A stretch of DNA of 64,000 bases from Agromyces bauzanensis (GTDB lineage: Bacteria; Actinomycetota; Actinomycetes; Actinomycetales; Microbacteriaceae): contig NZ_BMMD01000010.1 in NCBI RefSeq assembly GCF_014645655.1, positions 62,001 through 126,000 of the forward strand. Reading direction: 5' to 3'. The position numbers and the translations under genes are program-made. The notes beneath the pieces were generated by a model. It ran no database searches and had not been told where the DNA came from. It saw nothing but the letters and a program-made list of their open reading frames with translations. Positions 60,058 to 64,000 of this stretch are shown piece by piece (within the stretch, counting starts at the first letter, position 1; each line of letters opens with the position of its first letter).

Positions 60058-60140
60058 GCAACGACGTTCCGAGAGGTGTCGAGGGGCTGGTGGCCGCCGG
60101 TGCCGAACCCGGCGAGATCGGTCGTGCGTACCGGAGACGA
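60054..60140 (+). pseudogene. 5' fragment of a host gene cut by the mobile module
   Basis: GTG overlaps the previous stop (GTGA), as a normal next operon gene. SNDVPRGVEGLVAAGAEPGE and IGRAYRRR read well; beyond that the sequence composition changes and the frame ends at 60251 without sense. Most likely the first 29 codons of a gene interrupted by the element starting near 60141-60180. Confidence 0.5.
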
Positions 60141-60147
60141 GCATTGT

Positions 60148-61617
60148 TCGATCTCGCTCTATTGGTCTCGCGCAGGGTGTTCGCAATTCCGGGTACACGG
60201 CCCAGGTGGCGTTGGTCTGGGCTGCGTGGTGGAGGGCGGTTCCGACGCTGATTCCGACGACGTCGGCAACGACGCTTGCTGGTAACTCTTGAACGAGTTG
60301 GTCGATCCTCGCCCGCTTCATGTCGCGTGGATGGATGCCGAGGGCGGTGAGCTGAAGGCGCACATTCGCCCAGCTCGTATGGTGCTGCGGCATTGTTCCC
60401 TCGAAGAGCCATTCGGACTCGGCCGCTTGGAAGATGCGTCGATCATGGCGACTTGCGAGGTGGCGACGAAGCAAAGCGGCGATCGAATGCGGAAGCGCGA
60501 CCGGCGTTGTTCCGAACGTGATCCATATGCATCCCCCGTCGTCGACGATGTCTGTTCGTCGTAGGCGAATGCATTCCAGCGGCTGTGCGAACACGAGGAT
60601 GAACAGTCCGATGATTCGTGTGGGCAGCATGATGGACTCGTCGTCAAGGAGGCGGTCGGCTCTATCCCAGAGGAACGCGTCGGGGATGGGTGTGTGCGGC
60701 TGGGAAGGTTGCTTGGCCACTACTGAGACCTGGCGTGTGAGGCGATGTCGGGCAGCCCAGTGGATGAACGTGCGCGCGACCTTGTGCGGATCGTGCTGGG
60801 CGATGAACCGATCGACTGCCGCTTGGTCAAGCGACGACAATTGTCGTCCGTCGGCGTCAAGCCACGCGAGCAGTTCTGCGATCTTGCGCAACTCGGCCCG
60901 GCGCGTGTTCGCCGCGCCCATCGTCAACGGAGTGGCTTCCGAGCGCTGTCGAAGTTTCCGCAGGACCTCCCACTTGAAGTACCTGGTCATGATCGACGCC
61001 TGTTCAGCCGCGAGGTCGACGAAGAGGTGAGCGGCGTAAACCTCGAGGTCGCTGAGTCGGACATCGATCGTTGGCAGTGTTCCAGCACTCATCAGCATCC
61101 GTCGGAAATAGCGGACGCGAGTGGACTCCGGCAAGTCGTTCAGCGTTTCGTGGCTGATCGGCAGCTGTCCCGCTGCCATCGCCTGGAGCGTGGTCCCGAT
61201 AGAGTCTCGGCGCAGCCAACGCGTCACTGAACGGGGGTCGCGAGCGCTCAGGAGGAAGTCGCCCAAGCTAACGAGGCTGGGATGGATCCGGCCGGTTTCG
61301 TCCGCGAGAAGTTCCTGCAGGCGATCGGTGAGCCGGCAGGACCCGCATTGGGAGCCGGTGAGCTGAATCTCGCTGCCGCAGGTCTTGCACCCGAACCGCT
61401 GCAGCGCTCCGGCGCACGCGGCACAAACGATCCGCCGTGATTGGTCATGGAATGCGAGAACCTTGGCCTGCCCACAGCCCGGACAGACCCCGGGGTGGCG
61501 CCGCAGTCGTGAATAGCACGTGTTGCAGATGCGCTGATCGAGAAGCTGGTACCGGGCCGGCACATCGCTACCACAGGAGTCGCAGCCGATCTGCGCGCGA
61601 ATCATCTCCCGCATCAT
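60148..61617 (-). CDS. Zinc-ribbon protein with degenerate tyrosine-recombinase fold
   Basis: About 490 residues to the probable element edge. Six CxxC pairs (C12/C15, C31/C34, C45/C48, C65/C68, C77/C80, C91/C94) form about three zinc ribbons. A helical core-binding-like region (about 180-320) and a C-terminal region with FVFAQPLECIRLRRTDIV (Arg I position) follow. The HxxR box is absent and replaced by RARIDQLVQELPASVVADVV; the end HHAAQTNATWAVYPEL lacks a clear nucleophile context. Likely an accessory DNA-binding partner, not a catalyst. The frame stays open past the boundary to 59188 over host DNA, so the true C-terminus is lost or altered. ATG at 61617 overlaps the HTH gene stop. Confidence 0.65.
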
Positions 61618-61973
61618 TCCGATGGGCGATGGAGCTTGGCGGGGACCGGTCGCAGGCGCCCGATCGCGGGCCCCTTCGACGTGCGTTCCGATCCGGCGGC
61701 TCGGCGCGGTTCCACCTGCACGGCGCGGACTTCGATCAGGTCGGTGGGTGTGCAGTCGAGGATCCGGCAAAGGGCGGCGAGCACTTCGACGTTGAGTCGT
61801 TCCGGCGTCTTGGTGACAAGCCGGAAGACCTGCTCGCGTGAGAGCTGCACGCCCTGTGCACGGAGCGGTTCGATCAGGTCGGTGGTCTGGAACATTCCTG
61901 CTGCTGCCATGAGCTGCCGCAGGTGCCAGGTGATCGGGGCTTCACGGCCGGGAGTCGGCATCGGGTCCTCCAT
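61614..61973 (-). CDS. Small Cro/C1-type HTH protein
   Basis: 119 residues: ITWHLRQLMAAAGMFQTTDL, then QLSREQVFRLVTKTPERLNV and EVLAALCRILDCTPTDLIEV, a YozG/XRE-like helix-turn-helix; a basic C-terminal 35 residues. ATGs at 61973 and 61961 are both possible. It sits between the two recombinase-like genes and overlaps both, so it is part of the module, perhaps its repressor or directionality factor. Confidence 0.8.
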   Translation of the reverse strand: MEDPMPTPGREAPITWHLRQLMAAAGMFQTTDLIEPLRAQGVQLSREQVFRLVTKTPERLNVEVLAALCRILDCTPTDLIEVRAVQVEPRRAAGSERTSKGPAIGRLRPVPAKLHRPSE

Positions 61974-63059
61974 AGATACGAGAAAGCAGCTCTGGTGATC
62001 ATTCGGTTCTTGAAGTCGTCGCCCACCGATGTGTAGATCGCCGTGGTCGACGCGTACGCGTGTCCGAAATGGTCTTGGACGAACTTCTCCGTGTAGCCCC
62101 ACTCGATGAGGTTGGTGACGTAGGTATGCCGGAGCGCGTGCACGCTGAGTTCGGACGGAACCCGAGCTCGTCGCGGATCGTCGCGAACCGGTGATCGATG
62201 TACCGCAGCGAGACCCGGCTCCCACGCTCGGTCGGCCACAGCGGCCCGCCCGGCGCGTCGGTGAACCGTGGGCGAGCCAGGTCAACCCACTGCGTGAGCC
62301 CTCGGTCACCCAGTCGAGCTCGGGAAGCGTCAGGACCGTTCTGCGGCGCGGCCCGGAGCCGTGTGCGCCTTTCCCCCAGCCCACTTCCACGGCGCCGAAC
62401 CGCCCGAATCTCGGAGCCTGACCGTTCGGCCGTAAGTCGGCGGTGTCCAGCCCGGCTGCTGCCGCACGGCGCAACCCGTAGGCGTAGATGGTCTTGAAGA
62501 TCTGTGCGTCCCGCAATGCGGCGAGGGCTCCCTTCCTGCCCTGCCGCATGATCGTCTCGACGCGGGCATCGGTGGCCGCGAAGAACTGCTCGAGCTCGTC
62601 GTACGTCAGCGCTCGGCGCGTCGACGGGCCCTCATAGTCGACGAGATGCGCGACCGTGTTCCACTCGTGACAGATCTGCTGCGGCACCGACCCGAACCTC
62701 CGCTCACACTCCGACGCCCAGTCGTACCGCGGGTCGGTGAGGTAGTCACAGAAGAGCCGAATAATCGCGTGATACCCCCGGATCGTGGACTTCGCCGCCA
62801 GCCGCCCCCCTGAGATCGCGTGAACCGTGAAATCCTCCAAGTCACCTGGCGCCCACTCCCACGGATACCGTCCAGCGAACTCGCCGAACCGCCGGATCAC
62901 GAGGACTCGACTCGAGACAGTGCTCGCCGCGAGCCCGCGACTGGCCTGCTGGTCACCCCAACCTGTCAACATCGTCTCGAACACGAAGCGTCCTTCATCG
63001 AGCGCACGCACGTTGCCCAGGAGCCGCAGCGGCGAGGTGCCACCTGAATCATTGGCCAC
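61874..63059 (-). pseudogene. Tyrosine recombinase split by two frameshifts
   Basis: GTG at 63059. Frame A gives the SAM-like N-terminal domain and Arg I (IYAYGLRRAAAAGLDTADL) up to LPELDWVTEG. Near 62295-62303 the homology moves to a second frame (LTQWVDLARPRFTDAPGG, WPTERGSRVSLRYIDHRF, ATIRDELGF), and near 62155-62165 to a third (PSELSVHALRHTYVTNLIEW, GYTEKFVQDHFGHAYASTTA, IYTSV). HxxR, GH and Tyr are intact in the third frame. Each break is healed by adding one base to a run (GGG to GGGG; CC to CCC), so real decay or homopolymer sequencing error is equally possible. The stop at 61874 overlaps the HTH gene. Confidence 0.8.
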
Positions 63060-63072
63060 GACTGTAGTATTG

Positions 63073-63101
63073 CATTAACTGCAACATTGTTGCAGTTAAT
63101 G
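63073..63101. promoter_or_regulatory. Perfect 12-5-12 palindrome upstream of the recombinase
   Basis: CATTAACTGCAA (63073-63084), CATTG centre, TTGCAGTTAATG (63090-63101). It lies 14 bp upstream of the recombinase GTG. It could be the operator of the module's HTH protein, or, by its arm and spacer sizes, a recombinase core site. No second copy was found in the window. Confidence 0.65.
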
Positions 63102-63320: not shown

Positions 63321-63854
63321 CTACGCCGACACTCGCGAAGCACGTCGCTTGCGAAGGCCCCCGATGATCCACACAGCAACGGCCAAGCCGAAGGCAAGAA
63401 TGGATGAGTACACAACGAGAGAGGCTGCCCATCCTCCCCCCGAACCCGTGCGGTATTCGGGACCCACAACGTTCGTAATCGCAATTGACATCGACCCGAG
63501 TGGCAATGCCCCGGACAAAGCCACAACACCGTACGCGGTGATCGAGGCAACGAAGATGCGCACGCTGTCGTCCGACCGCCTCGGAATGGCTGCGATCGTC
63601 GCTGCTGCCGCTGCTGCGATAGCCCAGATGACAGACGAGACCAGGACCTGCGTTACACCAGGCGGATGAAGGCGGGCCCACCCAGCTATCAGGTCCTCAT
63701 TGCCATGCATGGGCATCACTACATACACCCCCACTGCGATGATCGCCGCAGGAATAACGCACGCGGTGATGGCGAGCACTCGTCGGAGCACCGCGAACCG
63801 TCTCGTAGCTGACGAGCTACCCCCAGTTACAGAAAGCTGCGGGCGCGAAGCCAT
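63321..63854 (-). CDS. Hypothetical membrane protein
   Basis: 177 residues, four hydrophobic segments: about 25-48 (VLAITACVIPAAIIAVGVYV), 68-90 (VLVSSVIWAIAAAAAATIAA), 103-125 (IFVASITAYGVVALSGALPL) and 147-168 (LVVYSSILAFGLAVAVWIIG). No family recognised. ATG at 63854 overlaps the end of the upstream DUF2599-like gene by 38 nt. Lower G+C than the host average. The 260 nt between it and the palindrome show no gene. Confidence 0.65.
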   Translation of the reverse strand: MASRPQLSVTGGSSSATRRFAVLRRVLAITACVIPAAIIAVGVYVVMPMHGNEDLIAGWARLHPPGVTQVLVSSVIWAIAAAAAATIAAIPRRSDDSVRIFVASITAYGVVALSGALPLGSMSIAITNVVGPEYRTGSGGGWAASLVVYSSILAFGLAVAVWIIGGLRKRRASRVSA

Positions 63855-64000
63855 TCGCCACTACCCTTCCTGGACCTGATATGAACCAATCGGATTTGGC
63901 CGGCGTTGACAATTCGAGGTCCCACGTGTCCCATTCGGCCCACCCACCAGCGATGTGGCAGTCCCACTGCTGCTGCACCGACGCGCTCCCTACGCTTCTG
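63817..64000 (-). CDS. C-terminal part of a DUF2599-like protein
   Basis: Enters from the right edge. The 61 visible codons end at TAG 63817-63819 and read SVQQQWDCHIAGGWAEWDTW, DLELSTPAKSDWFISGPGRV and ANGFAPAAFCNWG. The Q/W-x-CH, tWDLE and CNW-type end match the DUF2599 pattern of small secreted actinobacterial proteins (by eye). It overlaps the following membrane-protein gene, so they are likely co-expressed. Confidence 0.6.
   Translation of the reverse strand, partial: RSVGSASVQQQWDCHIAGGWAEWDTWDLELSTPAKSDWFISGPGRVVANGFAPAAFCNWG

What the first reader, a model, noticed from the sequence alone, without database searches (positions are those of the whole stretch)
60141..63101. Three-gene mobile module: tyrosine recombinase, Cro-like HTH and a zinc-ribbon pseudo-recombinase
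Three overlapping genes encode one catalytic-type tyrosine recombinase, one small HTH protein and a roughly 490-residue protein with six CxxC pairs joined to a recombinase-like region lacking the HxxR box. Known tandem-recombinase systems (Tn554 TnpABC, RIT trios) use two or three active recombinases. A zinc-ribbon, catalytically degenerate partner plus an HTH protein looks like a distinct division of labour. This is the best candidate in the window for a poorly described system.
Basis: partly seen in the sequence, partly recalled or inferred. Interest (0 to 1): 0.75.

Follow-up and report, generated by a model that had tools for sequence, protein, structure and literature searches.

The report
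Actinobacterial island inserting into SRAP gene
This is the decayed end of a mobile DNA island of soil bacteria whose three genes (one working cut-and-join enzyme, one small regulator, one zinc-carrying enzyme look-alike that seems unable to cut) recur in many species, and in one branch the island is found at one exact spot in a DNA-repair gene.

Summary
The trio is real and conserved: of 54 places with the third gene (some near-identical copies), 52 have the HTH and recombinase genes upstream; one lacks upstream DNA, one is solitary. Intact recombinases keep R-K-HxxR-H-Y. The third protein has six CxxC pairs (12 of 12 Cys invariant in 13 homologues) and a predicted tyrosine-recombinase fold without the catalytic residues. 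The window's recombinase is frameshifted twice.

Comparing copies gave the ends: GGCATTATTC-type inverted repeats around islands of 3.2 to about 22 kb. In the window's branch the island follows nucleotide 27 of an SRAP (HMCES/YedK) gene: 15 of 29 loci show SRAP at one or both ends (12 right ends by tblastn; window and A. italicus right ends by eye). Three of four other sites resemble the SRAP start in register. Another branch sits at umuD/umuC.

Prior notice: Arthrobacter 'XER modules' (PMC6305408) are the same superfamily; the passages seen give no ends, SRAP, zinc ribbons or dead partner. SEs and GInts, similar in kind, also have a degenerate partner but two active recombinases. New variant of a known kind; movement untested.

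The parts
61951..63059 (-). tyrosine recombinase gene, broken by two frame changes near 62300 and 62167
   Evidence: tblastn with the R. qingshengii homologue; PF00589 on the C-terminal piece
61614..61961 (-). small HTH protein (HTH_26, Cro/C1 type), ORF intact
   Evidence: PF13443 E 4.9e-15; dN/dS 0.12 with A. italicus
60148..61617 (-). zinc-ribbon protein with degenerate tyrosine-recombinase domain; frame open and runs on past the element end
   Evidence: alignment A1, model and fold search, 917-aa open frame
63073..63101 (.). perfect 29-bp palindrome upstream of the recombinase; probable operator
   Evidence: 14-bp arms; similar TGCAWCAWTGWTGCA sequence upstream in relatives
60129..60150 (-). 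right end of the element: CGAACAATGC (inverted repeat of the left end) and the terminal bases to CCGGTA
   Evidence: comparison with relatives
60058..60128 (-). short, frameshifted stretch read as a remnant of the SRAP target gene
   Evidence: homology with A. italicus continues to 60104; no tblastn match to SRAP and the joined reading leaves the SRAP frame, so weak on its own
63321..63854 (-). cargo ORF, 177 aa, no Pfam match (membrane protein by look)
63817..64000 (-). end of a further ORF that runs off the window; contig ends 223 bp beyond

Best explanation
The trio is the integration module of a family of actinobacterial integrative islands. Shown by comparison: islands have imperfect inverted terminal repeats (left AATCTG-GGCATTGTTC, right CGAAYAATGC plus about 11-12 bases ending CCGGTA in the Agromyces copies), carry no cargo or several kb of it, and in the window's branch lie after nucleotide 27 of SRAP genes, behind the Met-Cys-Gly-Arg codons. 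Inferred: the recombinase performs strand exchange at a crossover of about 6 bp; the zinc-ribbon protein is a non-catalytic recombinase-fold partner that binds the ends or the target; the HTH protein binds the palindrome over the promoter and controls the operon. Insertion parts SRAP from its start and Cys2, which should inactivate that copy; a full SRAP remains elsewhere in the window's genome and in A. italicus (not tested for the other hosts). The window copy is decayed: its recombinase is frameshifted, and its left end lies on another contig of the same genome.
For: Order conserved in 52 of 54 places. Sharp shared blocks between copies at different sites; 3.23-kb trio-only copies 97-99% identical at three Rhodococcus sites. 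SRAP start plus left end: 7 of 20 records with the trio, one hit each, always 19 bases from codon 5 to the motif, reversed control 0; once in the window's genome, C3:226439. SRAP remainder right of the element in 12 loci by tblastn. One element (99.8-99.9% identical) in SRAP and at two look-alike sites. Empty site of pA2H2: about 7.55 kb between bases 2444 and 2445 of pA58H3. The flanks of the window island lie about 110 to 2,800 bp apart in 8 of 8 same-genus genomes fetched. Catalytic residues invariant in 14 recombinases. Third protein matches recombinases by fold.
Against: No movement, excision or activity was tested. In the 8 relatives fetched there is no SRAP at the window's locus, so the gene hit there was an extra copy of unknown arrival, not the core SRAP. 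11 of 29 loci show no SRAP, and none is annotated near the trio in six further plasmid regions (L173-L178). L056 does not resemble the site, and the three resembling sites score far below true SRAP starts (1.4 to 3.8 against 22 and 34). The window and A. italicus right-end remnants have no tblastn match. The in-frame joins are not independent, since I set the right boundary by eye. The roles of the zinc and HTH proteins are inferred.
Confidence: 0.72

Rival explanations
1. SRAP is not the target but a partner gene carried by the element; its pieces at the ends are remains of repeated cargo capture.
For: The A. italicus island carries its own divergent SRAP gene (PF02586 E 1.7e-15); relatives of the window lack SRAP at the locus.
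Against: The first 27 nt lie at one end and the rest at the other end in the same orientation; the same element sits outside SRAP at sites that resemble the SRAP start.
Confidence: 0.13
2. The trio is a plasmid or chromosome resolution cassette (Xer-like), not an integration module.
For: Nearest solved structures of the recombinase are XerA and XerD; 230 of 72,556 plasmid records have the third protein.
Against: Sharp insertion of whole islands with terminal repeats, one element at several sites, and a copy on a chromosome record.
Confidence: 0.05
3. The third protein still catalyses, with a shifted nucleophile (for example the conserved Tyr471), so that two active recombinases work as in SEs.
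For: Tyr471 is nearly invariant in A1 and invariant, like Trp468, in A3.
Against: HxxR, the second His and the Tyr at the usual place are absent by reading of the alignment; Tyr471 lies in the poorly modelled tail (residues 470-475 pLDDT under 50).
Confidence: 0.08

Closest known systems
XER modules of Arthrobacter plasmids (Romaniuk et al. 2018, PMC6305408; passages read)
   Same: Same three gene families in the same order in the one module examined, pA2H2: third protein matches profile A1 with 288 bits, recombinase A4 with 416 bits, HTH protein with 99 bits; cargo; inverted repeats GTGCTATT.
   Different: Third protein 828 aa with 18 CxxC motifs; inserted at umuD/umuC, not SRAP. The passages seen call it XerC and give no ends, target rule, zinc ribbon or loss of catalytic residues.
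[quoted passage not shown] PMC9345347: passages)
   Same: Operon with active recombinases and a recombinase-fold protein lacking RHRY (Tfp); imperfect terminal repeats; 6-bp stretch beside the end; cargo.
   Different: Two active recombinases and a fourth distal gene; [quoted passage not shown] the word zinc is not in the main text of PMC9345347.
GInts (PMC5385486: abstract and section 5)
   Same: Operon of recombinase-family proteins plus a small protein, island with cargo, GinC degenerate.
   Different: Three integrase-family genes, two of them with the full motif; GinD has no InterPro domain but a modelled HLH.
Tn554-like and RIT elements (PMC3414803: abstract and section 9 part 1)
   Same: Several tyrosine-recombinase-family genes in a row, many on actinobacterial plasmids.
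   Different: Two or three catalytic recombinases. Of 5 Famint36/41 plasmids searched, 3 have no match to our third protein and 2 weak partial ones; the pREL1 match has an HTH gene upstream, so a distant relation is not excluded.

Membership tests
XER modules (Romaniuk 2018) | core of recombinase, XRE/HTH regulator and third recombinase-family gene in this order | tested here: met
   one named module, pA2H2, scored against our profiles; pA8H1 not found under its accession, pA40H2 not fetched
XER modules (Romaniuk 2018) | insertion between umuD and umuC | tested here: not met
   window branch lies in SRAP
SE | two recombinases with RHRY (IntA, IntB) | tested here: not met
   only one of the three protein families has the residues
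SE | recombinase-fold protein without catalytic residues (Tfp) | tested here: met
   similar in kind by fold and alignment; homology to Tfp itself not tested
SE | no empty donor site, strand-biased circle | not testable with these tools
   needs experiment
GInt | ginABCD with three integrase-family genes | tested here: not met
   two recombinase-family genes, one of them catalytic
Tn554-like | TnpA and TnpB both catalytic, TnpC | tested here: not met
   one catalytic recombinase; homology to TnpC not tested
RIT | three adjacent catalytic tyrosine recombinases | tested here: not met
gamma-mobile-trio | GmtY model match over its cut-off | tested here: not met
   13.2 bits against a cut-off of 340, C-terminal piece of the broken window gene only

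The most novel reading that the evidence does not exclude
A widespread group of elements in which one active tyrosine recombinase is aimed by a zinc-ribbon, catalytically dead recombinase that reads the DNA of conserved starts of DNA-damage genes (SRAP Met-Cys-Gly-Arg codons in one branch, the umuD/umuC joint in another), the number of zinc ribbons and the target changing between branches; a site-selector subunit comparable in role to TnsD (recalled) but built from a recombinase.
Probability: 0.3. Interest if true: 0.82.

Novelty: new variant of a known kind. Interest (0 to 1): 0.62.

Why it matters
It gives a barely noticed actinobacterial trio its ends, a target and an anatomy, so excision and targeting can be tested directly. 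It adds a repair gene (SRAP/HMCES), at its catalytic start codons, to the integration sites known to me, and offers a system where one catalytic subunit and a seemingly dead, zinc-ribbon partner share the work, which bears on the open question in SEs, GInts and RITs of why several recombinase-family proteins are needed. Cargo includes arsenic and metal genes. Site choice on a very common gene could be useful for genome integration tools in actinobacteria.

Tried and rejected
Famint36/41 Tn554-like pairs (PMC3414803) as the same thing: profile A1 against 5 of the 6 listed plasmids gave two weak partial matches and three without; the pREL1 match has an HTH gene and a weak partial recombinase match upstream, so a distant relation stays open; the sixth, SCP1, is not held. 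GMT system: weak match only, and no paper on it in the listing. Palindrome 63073-63101 as the element end: dropped, since left ends were found farther out. Phage records: 0 of 50,697. Right end of the GA1 element: not resolved; its empty site is supported on the left side only. Metagenome and viral contigs: not scanned.

Weak points. The crossover bases are uncertain by a few positions. The 54 places include near-identical copies (L015, L049-L052; L037, L038, L044; L039, L040). The PWM was built from 8 SRAP insertions and 28 native starts (L037 and L043 missed, being on the other strand); L049 and L046 were in its training set; the background windows overlap and include the tested loci. In A3 four of the 12 Cys columns are only nearly invariant, L057 having been started late. 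L038, L044 and L051 are too short to judge for SRAP; L040 is the same insertion as L039 and is counted.

Full report
Setting. The window is part of contig C10 of a 3.7-Mb genome in 93 contigs. Agromyces italicus DSM 16388 (L036) is the same contig as G028:C5 by length and sequence, and G028 counts as same genus, so the window is from an Agromyces.

Observation. The three minus-strand genes are there. Pfam gives Phage_integrase (E 7.5e-9) on the C-terminal piece of the recombinase, HTH_26 (E 4.9e-15) on the small protein and double zinc ribbon (E 1.8e-4, below cut-off) on the third. The recombinase in the window is broken: homology to an intact Rhodococcus copy passes through three frames.

Conservation. 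tblastn with the third protein finds 230 of 72,556 plasmid records, the ten genera named in the output being actinobacterial, and 0 of 50,697 phage records. It is in 7 of 60 near relatives and in 29 of 396 genomes sampled over the phylum, the window's own genome counted in both (in one search only up to 4 candidates per genome were scored, and several matches are partial or weak). A scan of genome contigs with two short patterns gave 22 loci. Profile searches of the loci read gave 54 places with the third gene; HTH and recombinase lie upstream in 52, some being near-identical copies or cut by contig ends. L032 has no DNA upstream; L176 is solitary; L171 (pREL1) is a distant match. In 13 homologues all 12 cysteines are invariant, while HxxR, the second His and the Tyr nucleophile are missing by reading of the alignment; an Arg at the HxxR Arg place may remain in some. 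In 14 intact recombinases R198, K231, H309, R312, H335 and Y344 are invariant. dN/dS is 0.085-0.238 for nine gene pairs. A model of the window's third protein (pLDDT 84.5, pTM 0.56) matches XerH, XerA, an integron integrase and Tn1549 integrase (Foldseek E 1e-5 to 8e-4; TM-scores by query 0.26-0.39, by target 0.42-0.51). hhalign of the two families found nothing.

Ends. Pairwise comparison of relatives shows blocks with sharp ends, for example 2,979 bp between two Brevibacterium (90.8%), and 3,016 aligned positions between A. italicus and the window (79%). The right ends share CGAATAATGCC-type sequence. Searching left flanks for the SRAP start gave the left ends: 27 nt of SRAP, six bases, then GGCATTATTC, the inverted repeat of the right end. 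A pattern search of 20 records holding the trio found this arrangement in 7, once each, always with 19 bases between codon 5 and the motif, reversed control 0. The window's genome has it once, on C3:226439-226477, 0.65 kb from the end of that contig, with the same AATCTGGGCATTGTTC as A. italicus. C10 ends 223 bp beyond the window. So the island seems split between contigs. From the coordinates, the largest island with both ends found is about 22 kb (L048).

Target. Of 29 loci considered (window, L012-L017, L036-L057), SRAP sequence lies at both ends in 9 (window, L014, L036, L037, L043, L046, L048, L055, L057), at the right end only in 5 (L012, L013, L045, L047, L050), at the left end only in 1 (L049); 11 show none (L015, L016, L017, L039, L040, L041, L042, L052, L053, L054, L056) and 3 are too short (L038, L044, L051). 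Right ends rest on tblastn in 12 loci (L045 with E 5e-4; L037 5 kb beyond the trio) and on reading by eye in two (window, L036), which have no tblastn match there. Joining the flanks after nt 27 reads as SRAP in 8 of 9, with stops at codon 11 in L048 and 33 in L036; the window's reading leaves SRAP after the first codons. The boundary was set by eye, so the frame is not an independent test. SRAP is found in 59 of 60 genomes of the genus, mostly once, so adjacency by chance should be rare (inference). An element 99.8-99.9% identical sits in SRAP (L049) and at two other sites (L015, L052), and a 90% relative of the L046 island sits at another (L054): their left flanks fall in the top 0.009-0.017% of 364,082 background windows for the SRAP start, in register, though with low scores (1.4-3.8 against 22 and 34 for two true SRAP sites); L056 does not resemble it (0.53). 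No SRAP is annotated within the flanks of six further plasmid loci from other branches.

Empty sites. The two flanks of the window island are about 110 to 2,800 bp apart in 8 of 8 same-genus genomes fetched, chosen from the matches, without SRAP there (one search places it elsewhere). So the gene hit in the window strain was an extra SRAP. For the XER module of pA2H2 the uninterrupted umuDC of pA58H3 shows a clean insertion of about 7.55 kb, its ends being AACTAG-GTGCTATTCC and GTGCTATTTG. In Rhodococcus a trio-only 3.23-kb copy occurs at three sites, each beside a palindrome GATAATnnnnnTTATC. For the GA1 element an empty site supports the left end only.

Cargo. L046 island: ArsR, arsenite transporter, arsenate reductases and thioredoxin reductase by my reading of the ORFs; L013 has annotated arsenic genes left of the trio; L015 has ArsR and a P-type ATPase. 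A. italicus carries a divergent SRAP gene. Two trios stand in tandem in R. fascians pGS01.

Mechanism. Inferred: single catalytic recombinase; zinc-ribbon partner, probably dead, for end or target binding; HTH protein on the palindrome that overlaps the promoter. The best palindrome is centred 28 bp before the start in 10 of 17 loci; at most 21 of 300 shuffles reach it in 11 of 17, more than 120 in the other six.

Prior work. PMC6305408 (passages) named XER modules on three plasmids as putative integrative elements; the one examined, pA2H2, is the same superfamily. SEs and GInts have degenerate partners. I found no paper on SRAP as an integration site, nor on a zinc-ribbon dead recombinase, in the listings of nine searches of the held library; several listings were cut to the best 8 to 12 of many, and subscription papers are mostly not held.

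Noticed in passing
L036 2889-3518: The A. italicus island carries, next to its left end in the interrupted SRAP, a divergent SRAP gene whose product begins Met-Cys; possibly a replacement for the lost copy.
   Followed up: partly
L046 8420-13930; L013 1-4440; L015 7420-10405: Arsenic and metal resistance genes as cargo or neighbours of the trio in three genera.
   Followed up: partly
L181 4606-7541 and 9259-12236; L175 6759-10452 and 13414-17275: Two trios in tandem on one plasmid (in L175 the second set is by annotation only; its third protein was not matched by profile A1).
   Followed up: partly
L173 7190-7232, L179 2970-3000, L180 3000-3032: Each compact Rhodococcus copy lies beside a palindrome GATAATnnnnnTTATC that differs in its outer arms between sites; target rule or operator unknown.
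   Followed up: no
L176 9001-10422: Third protein without recombinase and HTH genes on an Arthrobacter plasmid.
   Followed up: no
G000:C18:68595-68786 (L002, L011): Short fragment resembling the third gene elsewhere in the same genome, perhaps remains of another copy.
   Followed up: no
L054 5301 and 14033: The Pseudoclavibacter terrae copy lies in what reads as a LuxR-type regulator gene on the opposite strand.
   Followed up: partly
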